From Crocodylus rhombifer (Eukaryota; Chordata; Crocodylia; Crocodylidae), in NCBI GenBank assembly GCA_038503035.1, contig JAVSML010024593.1, positions 156,571-220,570 of the forward strand: DNA of 64,000 nt, given 5' to 3'. Position 1 is the first letter of the stretch. The number at the start of each line of letters is the position of its first letter. This document shows positions 1-58,442 of the stretch, in pieces. The notes beneath the pieces are model-generated. The model was not told the DNA's origin and did not search any database. It saw nothing but the letters and a program-made list of their open reading frames with translations. The translations under genes were made by a program, and so were the position numbers.

Positions 1-1706
1 CCCGGGTCCTCCTTCCTCCCCTTCTTGAAAATGGGAACCACATTGGCCCTTTTCCAGTCCTCCGGGACTTGACCCGTGCGCCACGAGCGTTCAAATATTC
101 CCGCCAGTGGCTCTGCAATGATGTCGGCCAGTGCCTTCAGTACCCTCAGATGGAGCTCATCCGGGCCTGCCGACTTAAAGGCATCCAGTTCTTCCAAGTG
201 ACCCTGCACCACCTCAGGGTCCACGCATGGAAGTCTGGTGCCTTGCTGCTGCCTCCCTACACTCCCAGTGAGAGACTTGTCATGCCTCTCGCTTAGGAAC
301 ACTGAGGCGAAGAACTCGTTGAGGAGTTCAGCCTTGTCCCCTCTGTCCGTCACCAATTGTTTCTGCCCATTTAGCAGGGGTCCTATTCCTCCCTGGGCCT
401 TCCTTTTACTCCCTATATATCTAAAAAACAATTTCTTATTGTCTTTTACTTGGGTTGCCATCCTCAGCTCCATGGTAGCTTTGGCCTGTCTAACTGCCTC
501 CCTACAAGCACGAGCAGAAGAGGTATATTCCTCTTTGGTGATCTCTCCCTGTTTCCACTTTTTATGTGCTCCCCTTTTGGCCCTTAGTCTGCCCTGGATT
601 TCTCTGGTCAGCCAGGGAAGCCTCCTGGCCCCTTTCCCTCTTTTACCTCTCACGGGGATCGTCTCACTTTGTGCTCGAAGGATAGTTTCCTTAAGGCACA
701 GCCACCCTTCTTGGGCTCCCATCATTTCAAAACTACTACTCTGTAGTGCGTCCTTCACTAATCGCCCGAGTTCACTGAAATCAGCTTTCCTAAAGTCCAG
801 CACGTTCACCCTACTAGTTACCTTACCCACTCGACGCCTTATGTTGAATTGTATTTTTAGGTGATCACTGTCCCCCAGATGGCTACCGATCTGTAGGTCC
901 CCTACTATGTCATCCCCCGTTGCCAATACCAGATCCAGTAAGGCATTCCCCCTAGTGGGACCATGTACCTCCTGCGTCAGGTGGAGGTCCTGTACACAGG
1001 TTAGAAACCTGTGTGAGCGGTGGGACTTTGCTGTCTGTGTCTCCCAACAGATGTCCGGGTAGTTTAGGTCCCCCATGACCACCGCCTCTTTAGCTTTTAT
1101 GGTCTCTGAGAGTTGCCTCAGGAGCCCCAAATCTATTTCTTCCCCTTGATGTGGGGGTCTGTAGCAGACCCCTACCACCAAATCCTTTTCTCCTTGCCCC
1201 CCATGTAGCCTAACCCACAGTCCTTCTACTTCCTCATCCTTTGATTCTGTCTTGATGAGGGTTGATGTATATTGCTCCTTAACATAGAGCGCAACCCCTC
1301 CCCCCCTTTTCCCCACCCTGTCCTTTCTGTACAATCTATAGCCCTCGATATGTACCGCCCAGTCATGGGATGAATCCCACCAGGTTTCCGTCAGCCCCAC
1401 TAAGTCATAGGCGTTTAGTGCAACCAGGAGCGCTAGTTCATCCTGCTTGTTCCCCATGCTCCTAGCATTAGTATATAGGCACTTGAGCCCTGCGACTGGT
1501 GCCTTTGCTGCCCCCCGACTCCAAGTCCCAAAGGGCTCTTTGTCTCTTACCTTCTCGTTCCTTACCTGTGCCGTATTGCTGTCAACCCCCTGTCTTTCAT
1601 GTTCCCAAAGCTCTCTTTCTTCAGGCTGGGCTGTCCTTGTTGGTGCCACCTGGTTTGGTGGTCCACAGCTTCCCCCGCCCTCATCTTCCCCTCCCCCCCG
1701 ACGAGC
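1..1706 (-). CDS. CR1 ORF2 protein, partial: endonuclease plus start of reverse transcriptase
   Basis: I translated the minus strand codon by codon from 1706 to 1 and found no stop in about 568 codons; the frame runs off the window. ORF2 proteins nick target DNA and copy the element RNA at the nick. The APE-type endonuclease starts near 1481 (CLYTNARSMGNKQDE). Its expected signatures are all present: LTETWW (catalytic Glu), YRPP, GDLNYPD near 1068 (Asp/Asn) and GDSDH near 866-861 (Asp/His). The linker follows (KDNKKLFFRYIG), then the first RT block ([16 protein letters not shown]) at the edge. No AUG precedes the endonuclease: the first ATG, at 1457-1455, lies inside the conserved ARSMGNK motif. 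The frame is the same as ORF1, separated only by the ORF1 stop at 1709-1707. One extra G in the G7 run at 1699-1693 would explain why the -1 frame is not used here as it is in copy H. Confidence 0.9.
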
Positions 1707-1728
1707 CTAGTTTAAAGCCCGCCGGAGG
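1693..1728 (-). promoter_or_regulatory. Candidate -1 frameshift site and hairpin at the CR1-A ORF1 stop
   Basis: On the minus strand ORF1 ends in codons GCT TTA AAC TAG, giving the slippery heptamer T TTA AAC at 1716-1710 in the correct register. The RNA can form a 14-bp stem (1728-1715 with 1708-1695, G-U pairs allowed) around the loop UAAACU (1714-1709), so the stop codon straddles the loop-stem junction. Ten nucleotides after the heptamer begins a G7 tract, followed by G4, G3 and G5 runs. The sequence features are direct observations; the recoding role is inferred. Confidence 0.55.
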
Positions 1729-2770
1729 AGATCCGCCAACCTGTAAGAAAACACACGCTTACCTTTGGGGGACAGGTGAAGCCCATCCCAGCTGAGCATG
1801 TCCCTTGTTGTAATGTGTGGGTCATTGTCCAGGAAGCCGAAGCCTGCCTCGAGACACCACTGCCGAAGCCGCCAGTTGGTCTCTCGGATGCAGTTCTCAT
1901 GCCGTCTGCCGCGTCCGTTCACTGGTAGGATGGAAGAGAATACCACCTGTGCACCGAATTCCCTCAGCACACCGCCCAGAGCCTGGTAGTCCGCCATCAG
2001 GTGATCGGAGGTTCTCCTGGCTGCATCATTAGTACCCACATGGACAAGGACCATGGGGTAGTAATCGGTGGGCTTGATCCTGGCCTGGATTACCTCCGTC
2101 ACATCCCGAATCTTAGCTCCAGGCAGGCAGTAGACCTCTCGTGCTGAAGGGTCCTGGCGACAAATGGGCCCTTCCGCACCTCTCAGGATGGAATCGCCTA
2201 TGACAAGCACGCGTCTCCTCCTCTTCTGGGTCCTCTCGGATCTCTTGATCTGTTTGGAGTGTGAAGAATGTGGCGTTTCTTCCTGCCCAAGGGTTTCCTC
2301 CTCCCTTTCCATCTCCTGCAGAGTCGCCAAGGCCTCATACCTGTTCTCCAGCCAGACTGGAGAAGCTGGTACCTGCTCGCTGCGAGCTGCTCCGGTCCTG
2401 GCTGTGACCGTCTGTCACTCTGCTGTGGAGGTCCTTCCCTGGGCTGCTTCTCCCTTGGGTGCCTGGTCCTGCAGGGAAAGGAAATAACTGTCAATTTCCT
2501 CCTCCGCCTCCCTGATCCCCCTCAGCCTGCTAACCTCCTCCCGGAGCTCCCTCACCTGTGCCTCCAGAGCCCTAAGCCGGGCACCTGCCGGACAGGTGTG
2601 GGGGCTCCCAATCTCTGCCCCCCCGGCCCTGCTGGGGATCCCCCGCAGGCCAGGAGGTAGGGGGACATCAGCTCCCCCATGGGCTCAGTCTGGGTGGAGG
2701 CCTCAGACCAGCCCCGGTTAGCCTTGTCCCCCCGGGCAGAGGCCCTAGCAGCACTCCTTGTAGACACCAT
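1707..2770 (-). pseudogene. CR1 ORF1 protein, esterase type, with one frameshift and one nonsense codon
   Basis: ORF1 of CR1 elements encodes an RNA-binding protein that carries an SGNH/GDSL-like esterase domain. The probable start is the ATG at 2770-2768, which begins about 70 codons in one frame. After an indel near 2680 the reading moves to the frame that ends at 1707. In that frame a heptad-rich segment (LEAQVRELREEVSRLRG), probably a coiled coil, precedes a TGA at 2417-2415. From 2330 to 1707 an intact 207-codon segment holds the esterase blocks: VLVIGDSILRG (nucleophile GDS), VHVGTNDAA (GTND block) and WDGLHLSPKG (Asp/His block). The C-terminus RLADLLRRALN resembles RLAYLLQRALN in copy H. 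Domain assignment is firm; the exact start is inferred. Confidence 0.85.
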
Positions 2771-15672: not shown

Positions 15673-17375
15673 TCAGTGCAGCCCCAGACCCCACCACGAG
15701 GAGTGGCTGGGTCTTTAGTGCCGGGTCTGCCCAGCCACTAGGGGTCTGGCCTGAGCCCAGCCCCAGGGCCTCTGGCAAGCCACCTCTCCTGTTCTGTGAC
15801 TGGCTGCTCTCTGGCAGCCTCTAGCTGCAGGGTATAAAAGCCTGTAGCCATTTTGTGTCTTGGGAGGGAACCTGTTCTTTGTCCAGGCACCCAGCAGGCC
15901 ATGTGTGCCCCCTAGACAGGGCACAGGCTGGGCACAGACTGCGTCTGCCTGGCCTGTTCCCTCTGCAGAGCTGCTGCTTGGCCACAGGTGAGTCTTGCAA
16001 AGGGCTGCACCTTGCTGCACCCTTGCCCAGTCCTGAGATTCCCCCATGGCTGCTGCCTGGCTGTCTCTGGCAGCAGGGCCAGCACCTGCTCCTTACTGCT
16101 GCTCACCTTCAACAGAGTCTCTTTGCAGGTGCTGTGATGGAGAGCTTCTGCCACAAGGCTCCCAGTCCCTGTCCGTGCCCCTCTGCTGAGACTCCTGAGC
16201 ACACAGGAACAGCTGTGCGTGGGCTCAAAGAGTTGACGCAGGATGAGAATGCCATTTTCATCATTCTTCCCATTGAGTCTTGGCCCCACCCATGTGTGTG
16301 AGCCTGTGCCAACCTCCTGGGCCCCCAACTGGTTGGGGGAGGAGGTTGGTGACCTTGTGGTACACTGGGGCCATGCCAATGTGCAGAGATAGTTCACACA
16401 GGGTGGGTACCAAATGCCTAGATTTAAGAGGTGGTATGTGTGAGTGAAGGCACTCCCAGTCAGCACAGTAGTGCTGCATTAAGGTCAAAGCTTTGCGGGC
16501 ACAGTGGATGGCTGTGACCAACTACAGTCATTGGTCTGGCAGTGCCTCTAAAACCATGGTCTTTATGTGAGAGCTGACCTGTATTTTGGTGCCCCAGAAC
16601 TCAGGCTGCAACTCTGCAAGTGCCACCAGCAGGGGTAGCCTGGCTGAGCCCTTGCCCTGCTCTAACTTCTCCAGTGACACATCACCAGAGGAGGAGCCCT
16701 CAGGCCTTCAGCACCTGGCCCCATCCTCCTCCCCACTTGCTGCACCCAATGGCAGCTTGGGGAGCCCTGGCCAGCAGCTGCCTTGGTCTTGATGTAGCCC
16801 CAGACCCCACCATGAGGATTGGCTGGCCATGACACTCCCAGCTGCCAGCAGCACCAGTCCCTCCCTGGGGGGTGGCTCTGGCCAGGCATTAGCCCACTAC
16901 ACACTGCGGGCTATGGACACCAAGTGCAGCTGGACACTGTTGCTGATGGGGAGGCCCACACTGAGCTGCCAGCCTTGCCAGCCCTGGACACATGGTAAGT
17001 CCCAGACTGGAGGAAGGCCCTCCCAGTCCCTGCTCCTGCACCTGGCCCCAGCCCCTGGCCCTGCTGTATACCCCTGGCCTGCCTGCACTCCCCTGGCCCC
17101 AGGTTCCCTCCCACTACAGCACACAAGGAGGTAGGACACAGTTCAAAACTTTATTCAGTATCCTGTGTCCCCACAGCTGAGTGGGTATGGGCCTCTCACA
17201 CACCAAAGAAAGTGTCAATGCCAGCAACAATGTCCTCCTCAGCAGCGGGGGGGCAGGGGGAGGAGGGACAGAGACATGTAGCACTGTGGCAGTAGCAGAG
17301 GTTGCAAGGCAGCCAAGGCTTTCCCTCCATGCCAGTATCTGGGGGAACATTTGTTCACCGGAGTGCCCTGAGGGA
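15673..17375 (+). mobile_element. PIF/Harbinger element copy 1, decayed
   Basis: This GC-rich block is homologous in parts to 24504-25860: the Myb-like region at 16325-16565 and a downstream segment near 16830-17030 that resembles 25500-25700 (for example CAGCAGCACCAG and CACACTGTTGC in both). The reverse-strand motif CTGAATAAAG at about 17143-17155 may be a poly(A) signal for the minus-strand gene. No transposase frame was recognised before the sequence gives way to a CR1 tail at 17376. Limits are approximate. Confidence 0.5.
16325..16565 (+). pseudogene. Myb/SANT-like DNA-binding domain of Harbinger copy 1
   Basis: Plus-strand frames encode NWLGEEVGDLVVHWG, VQR then FTQGG, and CCIKVKALRAQWMAVTNYS. 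These align with the corresponding region at 25012-25270 and with the trihelix Myb/SANT-like proteins that accompany Harbinger transposases. In-frame stops interrupt it, for example between VQR and FTQGG and just before CCIKVKAL, so it is a pseudogene. In active elements this protein binds transposon DNA and brings the transposase into the nucleus. Confidence 0.5.
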
Positions 17376-17643
17376 TGATGAGGTCAAATGGTTATAAACT
17401 ACTGCAAGACTGTTTCAGGCTGGACATAAGGAAGAATTTCTTTACTGTCCAAGCCCCCAAGGTCTGGAATAGCTTGCCATCAGAGATGGTTCAAGCACCT
17501 ACTCTGAACACCTTCAAGAGTAAATTGGATGCTTATCTTGCTGGGATCCTATGACCCCAGCTGACTTCCTGCCCTTCAGGCGGGGCACTGGACTCAATCT
17601 TCCAATGTCCCTTCCAGCCCTAATGTCTATGAAATCAATGAAA
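17376..17643 (+). mobile_element. CR1 3'-end fragment, copy-H type
   Basis: Contains the last coding codons (the LDIRKNFFTV region, then VWNSL...) and the tail CAGCCCTAATGTCTATGAAATC. This tail matches that of copy H at 51516. 5'-truncated to about 270 bp. Confidence 0.85.
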
Positions 17644-18670
17644 TCATTGTAGCTCAGGATCCTGAACCAGGAGTGCATATGTGCCTGGGGCTCCCAAGTC
17701 TCCCAGATCTAGGATTTTGAAAATGTGGAGGGTGACCACAAGCTGCCCTTTGCTGACCTGGTGGGGAGCAGCCCATCAAAGGGGAAGAGGGTCAGGTAGA
17801 GCCTGAGGCTTGGCCACCCCAGAGAGCCCCACAGGAGTGGGGACAATGAGTAAAGGGGTGGGGAGCAGCCCCTTCCCCACCCCAGTAGAGGAGTTTGGGG
17901 AGTTCCAAGTCCTGTGTGCCCCTGCTCCCCCTTTTCCCTCACCCAGACCTTGCAACTGCAGAATCATAGGGAATGACTTCCATGCTCAGGGCAGGGAGGA
18001 GAGGGGGAGAGAGAATATTAAGTTGATCTCGGGGGAGTGGCAGTGGTGATGGTGATGTTACCTGCTATGTCTCAGGCTCTCTGCACTCCAGCTGCTGCTA
18101 CTGTAACCCAGGTGCAGGAAGGAGCTCCAGCTGGCGGACAGGCAGCAAGGTATCTAAGGAGCAGGGCCAAGCAGGGCCAAGCAGGGGAGGGCAGGCTGGT
18201 GGTCTATGGGGACTCTGTGCCACTGGGTCTGGTGCATGCAGTATACAGGAAGCCTGTCTTTGCTTCACAGGAGCAGAACCCACAGGTGTGCTGCAGCAGC
18301 AGAGAGTCTAAACCATAGTAGGTAACATCGCCATCACTGCTGTCACTCACTGTTAGTTAGCATCATATACTGTTCCAACCCCATTCTGCTGTGGCCAGGA
18401 TGGATACACTATACCATTACCATGACCCAGCCTGCCATCACTACAATAAGGCCTACCTGTCATCAAATTGGAGAGAGCCCCAGGGAATCATGCCAGCTCC
18501 CTCACCGCTGCTCCCCCACCATGAGGAGCCAGATCCCTCTTCCCTACACCTGCAACAGGAATCAAAGAGGGTCACCACACCCTCCCTGGATCCACCCCTG
18601 CATCTAAAAAACATGAGATGGGGGGAGGGCGGGGTGAAGACTGAAGGTGTGTACAAATGGTACATTTAGA
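17644..18670. other. GC-rich non-coding DNA
   Basis: No gene recognised. Three tandem copies of a 10-bp unit (AGCAGGGCCA) lie at about 18162-18191. The block may be more decayed Harbinger sequence, but I could not show this. Confidence 0.4.
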
Positions 18671-51610: not shown

Positions 51611-54515
51611 TCATAGGATCCCAGCAAGATAAGCATCCAATTTACTCTTGAAGGTGTTCAATGTAGCTGCTTGAACCACCTCCACTGGCAGACTGTTCCA
51701 GACCTTGGGGGCTCGGACAGTAAAGAAATTCTTCCTTATGTCCAGCCTGAAAAGGTCTTGCAGGAGTTTGTGACCATTCGACCTTGTCATCCCTTGGGGC
51801 GCTCTGGTGAACAAACGTTCCCCCAGGTACTGGTGAGCACCCCTGATAAACTTATAGGTGGCCATCAGATCACCCCTGAGCCTACGATTTTCCAGGCTAA
51901 AGAGTCCCATGGCTCTCAGCCTATCATCGTAAGATCTGTTTTCCTGACCTCTGATCCTGCGTGTGGCTCTCCTCTGGACTCTCTCCAGCTTCTCCACATC
52001 CTTTTTGAATTGTGGAGCCCAAAACTGGACGCAGTACTCCAGCTGCGGCCTCACCAAGGCCGAGTACAAGGGGAGAATGACGTCCCGGGATTTGCTCGAG
52101 AAGCATCTATGGATGCAAGCCAGCATTTTGGTTGCTTTATTAGCCACAGCATCACATTGCAGGCTCATGTTCATCTTGTGGTCAATGATGACCCCAAAGT
52201 CTCTTTCTTCTGTAGTGCTATCCAATGTAGCACTGTCGAGTCTATAAGGATGCTGCAGGTTTTTCCTCCCAAGGTGGAGAACCTTGCATTTTTCGGTGTT
52301 AAACACCATCAGGTTCTCATCTGCCCATTTGCTGAGCTTGTCCAGGTCAGCCTGGTTCATCCGCCTATCTTCTGGCATGGGTGCTTTGCCCCAAAGTTTG
52401 GTGTCATCGGCAAACTTGGCCAGTCCACTCCTGACTCCAATGTCCACATCGTTAATAAAGATGTTGAACAGTATGGGTCCAAGGACAGAGCCTTGAGGGA
52501 CCCCACCAGTCACAGGGCACCATGATGAGTGACTGCCATCAATTACAACCCTCTGGGTCCGACCACGGAGCTAGTTTCCCAGCCAGTGGATCGTGGTGGA
52601 GCCAAGACCACAACTGGGCAGTTTGGCCAAGAGGTGATCATGGGATACCAGATCAAAAGCTTTTCTGAAGTCAAGATATATGACATCAATCTCTTCTCCC
52701 TCATCCAGGTAATAGGTCACCTGGTCATAGAAGGAAATGAGATTGGTCAAACAAGACCTACCCACAACAAACCCATGCTGGCTATCCCTTAGGATGTTAG
52801 CCTGGGCCAGTCCCTCAAGGATGGCCTCCTTAATAAACTTTTCTAAGATCTTCCCCAGGATAGAAGTCAGGCTAATGGGCCTGTAATTAGCTGGATCCAC
52901 TCTCCTCCCTTTGTTGAAGATCGGCACCACATTGGGCTTCTTCCAGTCTTTGGGCACTACACCAGAGGGCCAGGAGTTTTCAAAGATCCATGCCAGGGGC
53001 TGGGCTATGACACTCGCCAGCTCCTTGAGTACCCTGGGGTGCAGATTGTCAGGGCCAGCTGACTTGAAGGTATCCAGCTTCTCAAGGTGTTCCTTCATGA
53101 AGTCAGCATTTATGGAGGGTAGGGGATCCCCATCACCCGGATCTCCCTGTCCCAAAGCAGGCATGGGCGTCCCATGTGACTGATGAAAGACTGATGCAAA
53201 GTACCTATTTAATAGGTTGGCTTTTTTCTGGGCACCAGTTGCCCCATCTGGTGTAGCAGGGGTCCAACGTTGCCCTTGCTTTTCCTCCAGCTCCCCACAT
53301 ATCTGAAAAAGGACTTTTTGTTGTCCTTGATGCTTGAAGCTAGTTGGAGTTCAGTTGCAGCCTTGGCTTTCCTGGTTTGCTCCCTGCAGGACTGGACCAG
53401 CGCAGAATAATCCTCCTTGGAGGTGAATCCTGTCCTCCATCCTTTGTAGGCTTTCCTTTTTAGCCGCAGGAGGTCCGCTAGGTCCCTAGAGAGCCAGGAA
53501 GGCTGCTGTGCCTTCTTGCTGCCTTTCCTCCGTGTTGGAATAGATTTAGCTTGTGCATTGAGGATCACTTCCTTGAGGAGCAACCACTCTTCTTGAACTC
53601 CCATCTCCCTGGGGTCATGGTCCCTAAGGGCCTGACCGACAAGCCTCTTGAGCTTGTCAAAGTTGGCTTTTCTGAAGTCAAGGACTTCTGTGTTGCTGAC
53701 TGACTTGCCAGCTTTACGGCGGATGGTGAAGGTGATCAGCTCATGGTCACTGTCACCCAGCTTCCCATCGATCACTAAGTCGCCGTTTAGGTTGTCCCCC
53801 GTAGCCAGTACCAGGTCGAGCAGCGCTTTGCCTCTCGTTGGCCCATAGACTTCTTGAGTCAGGTAGAGGTCATCCACGCACGAGAGAAAGTTTTGCGACC
53901 GCTTGGATTCTGCTGAGTTATCTTCCCACGAGATGTCCAGGTAATTGAAGTCACCCATGACAACCAAGGTCCTGGAGCAAGCGGTCTCAGTCAGTTCCTG
54001 GGTGAACTCCTGATCAAGCTCAGGACTTTGAGTGGGAGGTCTGTAGTAGACTCCCACCATTGTGTCCCCTGTGCCGTATTCCCCATGAATTTTTACCCAG
54101 AGGGTCTCTAGCTGTCCACGCTGGTCACCAACATCAGCTTGCAGGGACATGTAGATTTCCTTCACATAGAGAGCTACACCCCCACCCCTTTTGTCAACAC
54201 GATCCCTCCTGTACAGGGTATAGCCCTCTATACCCGTGGTCCAGTCATGGGTGGAGTCCCACCAGGTCTCTGTTATCCCAATGATGTCATAATTCTTTGC
54301 GCTGAGCAGGAGGATGATCTCCTCCTGCTTGTTGCCCAGGCTCCTGGTATTAGTGTACAGGCAAACAAGTGTCCCCTTGGGGGCTCTTGCCTTGCCCACA
54401 GATTGTGTCAGGGCTGGGGCAGGGGTGGGCTCCCTTAAGTGCCTTGGTCTGCTGACTCTGCAAGGGTCGCTCAGCGGGCCAGCAGTGGCAGTAGTCCCCC
54501 CATCCCCCAGCGGGC
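51611..54515 (-). pseudogene. CR1-H ORF2: endonuclease and reverse transcriptase, two lesions only
   Basis: The endonuclease frame is open from within ORF1 down to a stop at 53211-53209. It shows CLYTNTRSLGNKQEE, ITETWWDS, GVYYRPP, MGDFNYLDISWED and GDSDHELI. A 1-nt frame change near 53215-53235, beside an A-run, moves reading to the RT frame (53164 to 51611). That frame is broken by a single TAG at 52573-52571, in a position where other copies have tryptophan after the WLGN-like block. The RT carries [34 protein letters not shown], the catalytic [11 protein letters not shown] and the C-terminal [17 protein letters not shown]. No AUG occurs upstream of the endonuclease. Expression probably depended on ORF1 by frameshifting. 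Confidence 0.9.
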
Positions 54516-54536
54516 TTAGTTTAAAGCCCGCTGGAG
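54472..54536 (-). promoter_or_regulatory. Candidate -1 ribosomal frameshift signal at the CR1-H ORF1/ORF2 junction
   Basis: ORF1 ends in codons GCT TTA AAC TAA. T TTA AAC (54525-54519) is a classic X XXY YYZ slippery heptamer in the ORF1 frame. The ORF2 frame is the -1 frame relative to this and is open from upstream of the heptamer into the endonuclease. A 13-bp perfect stem (54536-54524 with 54517-54505) closes the loop UAAACU (54523-54518). A second GCCCGCTG at 54479-54472 could pair with the same left arm, offering an alternative downstream structure. The G-tract starts 10 nt after the heptamer, as in copy A. Recoding is inferred. Confidence 0.6.
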
Positions 54537-54952
54537 CAGGTAAGCCAGCCTGGCTGAAAAGAGCCTCCTCCCCAGGGGGAGAGGTGAGGCCATCTCTTCC
54601 CAGCAGCTCGCTGCCTCTCTCACCAAAGAGCGGGCTGTGGTCATGGAAGCCAAAGCCTTCCCGATGGCACCAGCTTCACAGTCTTTGGTTCACTGCGTGG
54701 ATCCTCCTCTCCCTCCTCAGCCCATAGCCCGAGACTGGGAGGATCAACGAAAACACCACCTGAGCTCCCAGACCCCTAAGCCCCGCTCCCAAATCCCTGT
54801 AGCACCTCATGACTTGGCTGGGGGTGCTCCGAGCCATGTCATTTGCACCCACATGAATAAGGAGAATGGGATAGTGGTCTGTGGGCCGGAGGAGCTGTGG
54901 GATCCTCTCCACAATGTCTCAGTTGCTAGCCTGTTTGCCCTAGGACACTGGA
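54516..54952 (-). pseudogene. CR1-H ORF1 protein, 5'-truncated esterase domain
   Basis: Frame 54912-54676 carries the GTND-type block as HVGANDMAR and the following VVFSLILPVSG block. The C-terminal part lies in other frames after a stop at 54678-54676, including GRDGL (the Asp/His block region) and the end RLAYLLQRALN. That end closely matches the ORF1 C-terminus of copy A, RLADLLRRALN. The nucleophile GDS block is lost to 5' truncation. Confidence 0.75.
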
Positions 54953-57778: not shown

Positions 57779-58091
57779 CCCCTGCCTGCCATAGCCATTT
57801 CCCTGCTTTCCTGTCTGCAGCTGCTGCTGGTTCCCTCCACACCCCCCACCAGTCACTGGCACCACATGGTTCCTGACTGCATTGCCAGGCTGCAGGACTC
57901 ATTATGAGCTGCCCTGCCCCCTGCAATTCTTGGCTGGCTCTGTGCAGTTCCTGTCAGGCTGGGCTGGCTCGTACGGCATCCTGTGGTCTCAGCTGTGCAG
58001 GTGTGATGTGATGCCAGAGCAGCGAGCAGAGGGGACGGACAGGTAAGCAGCAGAAGGGCAGCAGTGGCAGATGGAGGGGGAAGTGGCAGCA

Positions 58092-58101
58092 NNNNNNNNN
58101 N
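58092..58101. other. Assembly gap (10 N)
   Basis: Ten N lie between GGGGAAGTGGCAGCA and a C/A-rich tract (CCCCCCACAAACCCACAC) inside hAT element 6. Confidence 0.95.
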
Positions 58102-58442
58102 CCCCCCACAAACCCACACACCCACAGCCCTCCATAAACCTATACCCACCAACCCATACCCCCAAATATTTTTGGAAATCAAATTAATGAATGTTGTAGT
58201 AGATGTTTTATTATTAGAACATAATTTGGTATTTTTCTGGTTCTGAGATGGTAAATCCCCTTGTTGAAAGGAGCACTGCCAGAGTGGAAGGGGAGGGACT
58301 TCTGGTGGCAAGGATCAGGTGTTAGGTGGTGGGACCCAAGGTGGTGACCAGGGGGCAGGGTTACCCTTGCGGCCCTTGACAGCTTGCCAAAACCTGGTAA
58401 GTGGCCCTTCACCTGAAATAATTGCCAATTCCTAATCTAGTA

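What the first reader, a model, noticed from the sequence alone, without database searches (positions are those of the whole stretch)
54472..54536. Slippery heptamer U UUA AAC places CR1 ORF2 in the -1 frame of ORF1
Seen directly on the minus strand: ORF1 ends GCT TTA AAC TAA, the heptamer is in the correct X XXY YYZ register, and the -1 frame is open from before the heptamer through into the endonuclease with no stop. No AUG starts ORF2 ahead of the endonuclease. Known: UUUAAAC is an efficient -1 frameshift site in other systems such as coronaviruses. Inference: CR1 ORF2 is made as an ORF1-ORF2 fusion by programmed -1 frameshifting. I do not know of this being described for CR1-clade LINEs.
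Basis: partly seen in the sequence, partly recalled or inferred. Interest (0 to 1): 0.88.

Follow-up and report, generated by a model that had tools for sequence, protein, structure and literature searches.

The report
Ribosomal frameshift site in CR1 retrotransposons
A common jumping gene of reptiles, birds and frogs ends its first gene on a short "slippery" word that probably lets some ribosomes slip back one letter and go on into its second gene, a trick best known from retroviruses and coronaviruses.

Summary
TTTAAAC (window 54519-54525, minus strand) abuts the ORF1 stop in X XXY YYZ register; the endonuclease frame is -1, with no stop and no AUG between. But this copy is decayed: most of its ORF1 esterase lies in the ORF2 frame, so it alone proves little. 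A second CR1 copy (window 1-2600) has the same CTTTAAACTA at its ORF1 end, but its ORF2 is in frame 0. Relatives decide. Of 120 listed ORF1 homologues, 104 reach the C-terminus; 94 have Ala-Leu-Asn there, 90 stop right after it. Nineteen of 213 ORF2-search proteins read Phe-Lys-Leu upstream of the endonuclease, the same heptamer in the -1 frame; six of the 19 have no Met in between. A two-frame test on ORF1 proteins that lost the stop supports offset -1 in a bird-like and a turtle family (20/21 and 18/27 residues compatible, 0 of 300 shuffles); two further proteins were uninformative. Best reading: programmed -1 frameshifting makes an ORF1-ORF2 fusion. No frameshift assay was available. No stimulator was established; a 13-bp hairpin around heptamer and stop and a G tract at +10 are candidates. 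DNA of relatives could not be fetched.

The parts
54519..54525 (-). copy A slippery heptamer TTTAAAC, register T TTA AAC in the ORF1 frame
54516..54518 (-). copy A ORF1 stop TAA, flush against the heptamer
54516..54578 (-). copy A last 20 ORF1 codons plus stop (PLGRRLFSARLAYLLQRALN*), ORF1 frame
   Evidence: resembles alligator P0139
54579..54918 (-). copy A decayed ORF1 esterase remnant, lying in the ORF2 (-1) frame, with one in-frame stop
   Evidence: boundaries approximate; indels inferred
53209..54675 (-). copy A open frame (stop to stop) that carries the -1 reading through the heptamer and the ORF2 endonuclease
   Evidence: Pfam PF03372 and PF14529
53743..54327 (-). copy A ORF2 endonuclease domain (PF03372 match)
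   Evidence: residues 117-311 of 488
51611..53350 (-). copy A rest of ORF2, reverse transcriptase, broken over two frames
   Evidence: PF00078 in both pieces
54505..54536 (-). copy A hairpin, 13 bp, 6-nt loop; heptamer and stop sit in the loop and top of the stem
54496..54508 (-). copy A G tract GGGGGATGGGGGG, starting 10 nt after the heptamer
1710..1716 (-). copy B slippery heptamer TTTAAAC
1707..1709 (-). copy B ORF1 stop TAG, flush against the heptamer
1710..2414 (-). copy B ORF1 esterase part, open over 235 codons, ends ...LLRRALN; an in-frame stop lies just upstream (2415-2417)
   Evidence: PF13472
1696..1727 (-). copy B equivalent hairpin, 13 of 13 pairs kept
1672..1699 (-). copy B G tract, starting 10 nt after the heptamer
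351..1706 (-). copy B ORF2 endonuclease part, here in the same frame as ORF1 (by eye, a net one-base difference from alligator P0020 in the G tract)

Best explanation
The site is a programmed -1 ribosomal frameshift signal of esterase-type CR1 LINEs. Most ribosomes read ORF1 to ...Arg-Ala-Leu-Asn and stop at UAA or UAG. A fraction slip one base back on U UUA AAC with Leu and Asn tRNAs in the P and A sites, read CUA next, and go on through a linker (33-91 residues in the 19 proteins) into endonuclease and reverse transcriptase, giving an ORF1-ORF2 fusion (...Ala-Leu-Asn-Leu...). The stop flush against the heptamer may itself favour slipping. Shown here: heptamer and register in two copies; Leu-Asn-stop in crocodilian, turtle, lizard, snake, bird and frog proteins; FKL in the ORF2 frame in lizard, alligator, turtle and bird proteins; -1 offset by a two-frame test in two families; no shared AUG among the 19 proteins. 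Inferred: that slipping occurs, its efficiency, and that the fusion is the working ORF2 protein.
For:: 104 of 120 listed ORF1 homologues (of 283 found) reach the profile end; 94 have ALN there and 90 of these end with it; the other 10 are TLN 2, CLN, SLN, VLN, AVN, ASN, ALS, ALI one each, and one (P0182) without residues there; the final Asn ranks first of 329 scored positions (101 of 101 aligned; counting the ALS and ALI proteins that the local alignment cut short, 101 of 103), Leu tenth (101 of 103), Ala 34th (98 of 103); 19 of 213 ORF2-search proteins hold FKL upstream of the endonuclease (Podarcis 1, Alligator 2, Gopherus 1, Grus 4, Limosa 4, Mycteria 4, Anas 1, unnamed 2); 12 of the 19 have GEG exactly three residues later. 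Leu-Asn in one frame and Phe-Lys in the other force TTTAAA then C or T; two-frame test. P0192 (unnamed source, Grus-like, stop read as Cys) against P0322: 20 of 21 residues compatible at offset -1, 0 of 300 shuffles; against four Grus proteins 12, 14, 15 and 16 of 21, 0 of 300 each. P0209 (Lepidochelys kempii, stop read as Trp) against P0090 (Gopherus): 18 of 27, 0 of 300. For these pairs other registers and offset +1 gave at most 9. Against all 19 FKL proteins the best partner of P0192 was P0322 and of P0209 was P0090; no Met between heptamer and endonuclease in copy A and in 6 of 19 proteins; elsewhere Met offsets differ between families; the heptamer's TTA is the only TTA among 22 Leu codons of copy B ORF1. 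(passages of PMC5009743): U_UUA_AAC is among the most shift-prone words with mammalian ribosomes, and in pea enation mosaic virus changing a stop 3 nt past the shift site to sense drastically affects frameshifting.
Against: No assay, ribosome profile or peptide was available. Neither window copy has intact ORF1 and ORF2 at offset -1: copy A joins the esterase to the ORF2 frame, copy B has ORF2 in frame 0. A protein that spans the heptamer can only be in the -1 frame, so the 19 FKL proteins are an ascertained set; one of them (P0026) has an odd upstream stretch and no GEG. Only the two-frame test escapes this, and 2 of the 4 ORF1 proteins given to it did not help (P0163, named as an isoform; P0238, 8 residues). 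The pairs were picked after I saw the match by eye, and the shuffle control is lenient: some cross-family pairs also beat most shuffles with lower scores (P0209-P0072 12 of 25, 0 of 200; P0163-P0300 12 of 25, 2 of 200; P0163-P0072 12 of 25, 3 of 200). The downstream fold of copy A is not better than shuffles (z +1.1), nor are the G-tract folds. The conserved end is not unique: L329, L332, G321 and R335 near it are conserved too. The homologues are related copies, not independent samples, and the lists were cut at the best 120. The -1 frame of the main turtle family and of frogs was not seen directly.
Confidence: 0.78

Rival explanations
1. Termination-reinitiation or internal initiation: ORF2 is made as a separate protein by ribosomes that restart after the ORF1 stop, as in SART1 or mammalian L1.
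For: Other LINEs do this (SART1 and L1, passages of PMC5972666; L1 passage in PMC5009743). 13 of the 19 FKL proteins have a Met somewhere in the linker.
Against: No AUG in the ORF2 frame between stop and endonuclease in copy A or B; Met positions in the linker are not shared between families and 6 of 19 proteins have none; the Met of ARSMGNKQ lies after the conserved YTN strand of the endonuclease. A reinitiation site would not need TTTAAAC or a fixed -1 frame.
Confidence: 0.13
2. Stop-codon readthrough: ORF2 is in the ORF1 frame and the UAA or UAG in the hairpin is suppressed.
For: In copy B the endonuclease is in frame 0 behind the TAG, with no stop and no Met between, and a stable hairpin surrounds the stop. 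In copy A too the esterase remnant and the endonuclease share a frame, though that frame does not contain the TAA.
Against: The two-frame test gives -1 in two families, and P0020, P0006, P0246 and others read FKL to the endonuclease in one piece. By eye, copy B differs from alligator P0020 by a net single base in a G-rich run, the kind of change expected in a dead copy.
Confidence: 0.03
3. The word is a by-product: ORF1 needs Ala-Leu-Asn at its C-terminus, and ORF2 is expressed some other way, for example from truncated or read-through host transcripts.
For: The ORF1 C-terminus is conserved as protein, and other nearby residues (L329, L332, R335) are as well; DNA for codon-level tests exists here for two copies only.
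Against: Ala-Leu-Asn-stop could be written 144 ways by the code, yet the -1 reading FKL in lizard, alligator, turtle and bird proteins requires TTTAAA (reasoning); positions 333 and 334 just before Arg-Ala-Leu-Asn vary (58 and 51 of 103); the linker is open in -1.
Confidence: 0.06

Closest known systems
-1 programmed ribosomal frameshifting at U_UUA_AAC (coronaviruses; review PMC5009743, passages seen)
   Same: Same heptamer in the same register; downstream enzyme ORF in -1; no AUG of its own.
   Different: ORF1 stop directly abuts the heptamer, so the frames hardly overlap beyond it; no 3' pseudoknot or other stimulator established; the carrier is a vertebrate non-LTR retrotransposon.
Gag-Pol frameshifting of LTR retrotransposons and sirevirus gag-pol junctions (passages of PMC5009743)
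   Same: Retroelement enzyme ORF behind a structural ORF; sireviruses have a conserved stem with covariant nucleotides at the gag-pol junction.
   Different: CR1 is a LINE without LTRs; the hairpin here is seen in two crocodilian-like copies only.
ORF1-ORF2 coupling in SART1 and mammalian L1 (passages of PMC5972666)
   Same: Two-ORF LINE whose second ORF must be reached on one RNA.
   Different: Termination-reinitiation is observed for SART1 (an overlapping stop-restart site) and proposed for L1; CR1 shows no shared AUG here and a -1 frame.
Take-off stem-loop of T4 gene 60 bypassing (passages of PMC5009743)
   Same: Shift site with a stop codon immediately 3', in or by a small stem-loop.
   Different: There a long gap is hopped in a phage mRNA (gap length recalled as 50 nt); here a one-base slip is inferred, and the hairpin is not shown to act.
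CR1 clade LINE with esterase ORF1 (type IVB, CR1 subgroup 7; passages of PMC4120745)
   Same: Esterase ORF1, endonuclease and reverse transcriptase ORF2.
   Different: The passages seen do not say how ORF2 is translated.

Membership tests
-1 programmed ribosomal frameshift signal | X XXY YYZ heptamer in register with the upstream frame | tested here: met
   T TTA AAC in both window copies; forced by LN-stop plus FKL in relatives
-1 programmed ribosomal frameshift signal | downstream ORF open in the -1 frame from the heptamer | tested here: met
   copy A; 19 of 213 proteins; two-frame test. Copy B fails: its -1 frame has a stop 12 codons on
-1 programmed ribosomal frameshift signal | 3' stimulator (pseudoknot, stem-loop) a few nt downstream | tested here: inconclusive
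   copy A downstream fold z +1.1; G tract at +10 in both copies, z from -1.7 to +0.4 against mononucleotide shuffles; pseudoknots were not searched
-1 programmed ribosomal frameshift signal | measured frameshifting | not testable with these tools
   needs reporter or peptide data
CR1 LINE with esterase ORF1 | SGNH/GDSL esterase in ORF1 | tested here: met
   PF13472, copy B, 6.3e-12
CR1 LINE with esterase ORF1 | APE-type endonuclease and reverse transcriptase in ORF2 | tested here: met
   PF03372, PF14529, PF00078
CR1 LINE with esterase ORF1 | placement in the CR1 clade by RT phylogeny | not tested
   closest proteins are sauropsid retroelement ORFs; no tree was built, the clade name is from the finding and recall
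termination-reinitiation (SART1 kind) | AUG overlapping or close to the ORF1 stop | tested here: not met
   no such AUG in the ORF2 frame of copies A and B; not at a shared place in relatives
gene 60-like take-off hairpin | stem-loop enclosing shift codon and stop, conserved by covariation | tested here: inconclusive
   13 of 13 pairs in both copies, one two-sided change, but chance 0.06-0.14 under random transitions

The most novel reading that the evidence does not exclude
All tetrapod esterase-type CR1 LINEs, probably since before frogs and amniotes split, make ORF2 only as a frameshift fusion, with an unusual signal: heptamer, stop flush behind it, and a G-rich stretch starting 10 nt further (possibly a natural RNA G-quadruplex stimulator), to which crocodilian copies add a hairpin that closes over the heptamer and stop.
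Probability: 0.2. Interest if true: 0.82.

Novelty: new member of a known kind. Interest (0 to 1): 0.62.

Why it matters
CR1 is described as the most abundant transposed-element family of birds, crocodilians, turtles and snakes (abstract of PMC4316615). How LINEs reach their second ORF is only partly understood; for SART1 and L1 restart mechanisms are reported or proposed. If CR1 uses retrovirus-like frameshifting, that would set its ORF1:ORF2 ratio, predict an esterase-endonuclease-RT fusion protein with a unique junction peptide, explain why several CR1 ORF2 gene models lack a sensible start codon, and give the element one small, testable control point.

Tried and rejected
DNA of relatives: the genome search on the window's own assembly was asked 16 times with the same request and never answered. 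Genome contigs gave no CR1 by DNA pattern or by alignment; viral contigs none by protein or alignment; a 14-base pattern hit 76 viral stretches, none encoding CR1 by tblastn at 1e-3. Plasmids and E. coli genomes: no match at DNA level. Phages: 12 records with weak matches, all under 60% identity and falling in the reverse-transcriptase part.

Hairpin as proof of RNA structure: rejected as proof. The stem is strong (22 and 13 of 25,538 windows of 46 nt fold at least as well, the copies' own windows included), but keeping 13 pairs under five random transitions has chance 0.06-0.14, and a ribosome on the heptamer would already have opened it (inference). From the amino acids, bird and lizard junctions do not look able to form it (inference by eye, no call).

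G-quadruplex: allowed by the folding model in both copies but not better than shuffled G-rich sequence.

Start of ORF2 at the Met of ARSMGNKQ: rejected because it lies behind the YTN strand, whose Asn I take (recalled, by analogy with L1) for a catalytic metal ligand.

Literature: searches with CR1/ORF1/ORF2/frameshift (7 papers, passages of 2 opened), esterase and stop codon (14, 2 papers, 1 opened), non-LTR and slippery (31, 1 paper, opened), chicken repeat 1 with ORF1/ORF2 (32, 11 papers, 5 opened), CR1 and programmed ribosomal frameshifting (52, none), TTTAAAC/LINE/ORF2 (53, 1, not opened), reinitiation (54, 8 papers, 2 opened), PsCR1 (66, 31 papers, 20 listed, titles unrelated, none opened), CR1/frameshifting/ORF2 (77, one phage paper, not opened). 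Passages seen, never a whole text: PMC5009743, PMC4120745, PMC2734521, PMC4316615, PMC1925062, PMC5972666, PMC2612034, PMC4255032; none of those passages describes frameshifting in CR1 translation. Kapitonov and Jurka 2003, Kajikawa 1997 and Haas 1997 are not held, nor are PMC540276 and PMC47316, so prior mention cannot be excluded. I recall, unchecked, overlapping ORFs in the mosquito CR1-clade element T1.
Full report
What is there. On the minus strand the window carries a CR1-type LINE (copy A, about 51.5-54.9 kb). Its ORF2 pieces match endonuclease (PF03372, PF14529) and reverse transcriptase (PF00078), and the esterase of ORF1 is recognised in a second copy (PF13472). The first ORF ends ...CGG GCT TTA AAC TAA at 54516. 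The word TTTAAAC at 54525-54519 is in X XXY YYZ register, the stop follows at once, and the frame one base back is open from 54675 to 53209, through the heptamer and into the endonuclease, without a Met between heptamer and endonuclease. The closest protein to copy B ORF1 is alligator P0121 at 91% over 93% of the query, so the window is probably from a crocodilian (inference).

Copy A is dead. The bulk of its recognisable esterase lies in the ORF2 frame; only the last 20 codons before the stop align with relatives in the frame that ends at TAA (compare alligator P0139). ORF2 is split into three open stretches. A second junction is in the window: copy B, 1-2600 minus. It ends ORF1 with ...LLRRALN and TAG, and has CTTTAAACTA at the same place, but its endonuclease is in frame 0 and its -1 frame meets a stop 12 codons after the heptamer starts. 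Set by eye beside alligator P0020 (FKLGSPGEGEDGG...) it has a net single extra base in the G-rich run. So neither copy on its own shows two intact ORFs at offset -1, and the case rests on relatives.

ORF1 side. The copy B esterase found 283 proteins, of which the best 120 were listed. Of these 120, 104 reach the end of a profile built from 19 of them; 94 have Ala-Leu-Asn at the end, and in 90 the protein stops there. The named sources with this ending include crocodilians, turtles, lizards, a snake, many birds and two frogs. In the profile alignment (123 domains) the last Asn ranks first of 329 scored positions, Leu tenth and Ala 34th; of the residues before them several vary (319, 327, 331, 333, 334), but others are conserved too (G321, L329, L332, R335). 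A C-terminal tripeptide this constant is what one expects if the bases are under selection, though protein constraint alone is not excluded. In copy B ORF1 the heptamer supplies the only TTA among 22 Leu codons.

ORF2 side. Two ORF2 searches (120 of 122 and 120 of 236 hits listed) gave 213 distinct proteins. Nineteen hold Phe-Lys-Leu upstream of the endonuclease: Podarcis 1, Alligator 2, Gopherus 1, Grus 4, Limosa 4, Mycteria 4, Anas 1, unnamed 2. In 12 of the 19 the residues GEG follow exactly three residues later; of the rest, five belong to a Grus-like family with its own linker, and P0026 and P0090 differ. FKL is TTY AAR YTN; with Leu-Asn-stop in the other frame the bases must be TTTAAA followed by C or T. 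Six of the 19 have no Met between FKL and the endonuclease strand; in the others the Met positions differ between families. One record, P0090 from Gopherus, runs from the esterase straight into FKL and the endonuclease, but as a gene model that may be how the annotator joined them.

Is the offset really -1? A protein that spans the heptamer can only be in that frame, so the 19 are a biased sample. I therefore used the four ORF1 proteins that read on past ALN in frame 0, and asked how many residues of an ORF2 protein can be encoded by the same bases in another frame. P0192 against P0322: 20 of 21 at offset -1, none of 300 shuffles as good; against four Grus proteins 12, 14, 15 and 16 of 21, none of 300 each. 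P0209 (turtle) against P0090 (turtle): 18 of 27, none of 300. For these pairs other registers and offset +1 gave at most 9. These pairs were chosen after I saw the match by eye. Run against all 19 FKL proteins, P0192 and P0209 again had P0322 (20 of 21) and P0090 (16 of 25 there) as best partners. The shuffle control is lenient: some cross-family pairs with lower scores also beat nearly all shuffles (for example P0209-P0072 12 of 25, 0 of 200; P0163-P0300 12 of 25, 2 of 200). P0163, named as an isoform and perhaps spliced, and P0238, with 8 residues, had no clear partner. So 2 of 4 stop-less ORF1 proteins were informative, and both say -1.

Structure. Heptamer and stop sit in the loop and top of a 13-bp hairpin in copy A (z -5.6 for 46 nt) and in copy B. 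Five differences between the copies, all transitions, keep all 13 pairs, one by a change on both sides, but chance gives that in 6-14% of trials. A G tract starts exactly 10 nt after the heptamer in both copies, about where GEG is encoded in relatives; the review says that natural use of G-quadruplexes to reach new frames was not then known but anticipated (PMC5009743, passage). The copy A downstream region alone does not fold better than shuffles (z +1.1), nor do the G-tract folds stand out. So the stimulator, if one is needed, is open. The stop flush with the heptamer is another candidate: the review reports that a nearby stop matters in pea enation mosaic virus.

How it most likely works. 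Ribosomes translate ORF1; most stop and release the esterase protein. Some slip on U UUA AAC and make a fusion of ORF1 with linker, endonuclease and reverse transcriptase. Shown: the word and register in two copies, its conservation by two-frame inference, the -1 offset in two families, the lack of a shared AUG. Inferred: the slip, its rate, the role of the fusion, and the extension to every tetrapod family.

Known or new. -1 frameshifting at this word is well known. For CR1 I found no mention in the passages and listings that I saw of the held open papers, but five CR1 papers that I asked for by id are not held. I call it a new member of a known kind, with an unusual feature: the stop abuts the heptamer.

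Noticed in passing
window 1-2600 (-): A second, different CR1 copy cut by the window edge, with an open ORF1 esterase part and the same CTTTAAACTA junction.
   Followed up: yes
window 17332-17645 (+): CR1 3' fragment 87% identical to the end of copy A, the closest match to copy A in the window; about seven other CR1 fragment places, mostly at 63-67% identity, lie on both strands.
   Followed up: no
ORF1 homologues: The C-terminal Asn of the CR1 esterase ORF1 ranks first of 329 scored positions for conservation.
   Followed up: yes
P0147: A protein filed under Klebsiella pneumoniae, from a contig of 2,932 bases, is a CR1-like ORF1 ending RRALN: most likely vertebrate DNA contamination.
   Followed up: no
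P0089, P0017, P0041: Proteins matching CR1 ORF2 bear host-gene names in public records (cyclic GMP-AMP synthase isoform, mitochondrial enolase superfamily member 1, adaptin ear-binding coat-associated protein 1).
   Followed up: no
window 57853-58314: N bases (20 in the window), seen in part as XXXX in an ORF translation; looks like a small assembly gap.
   Followed up: no
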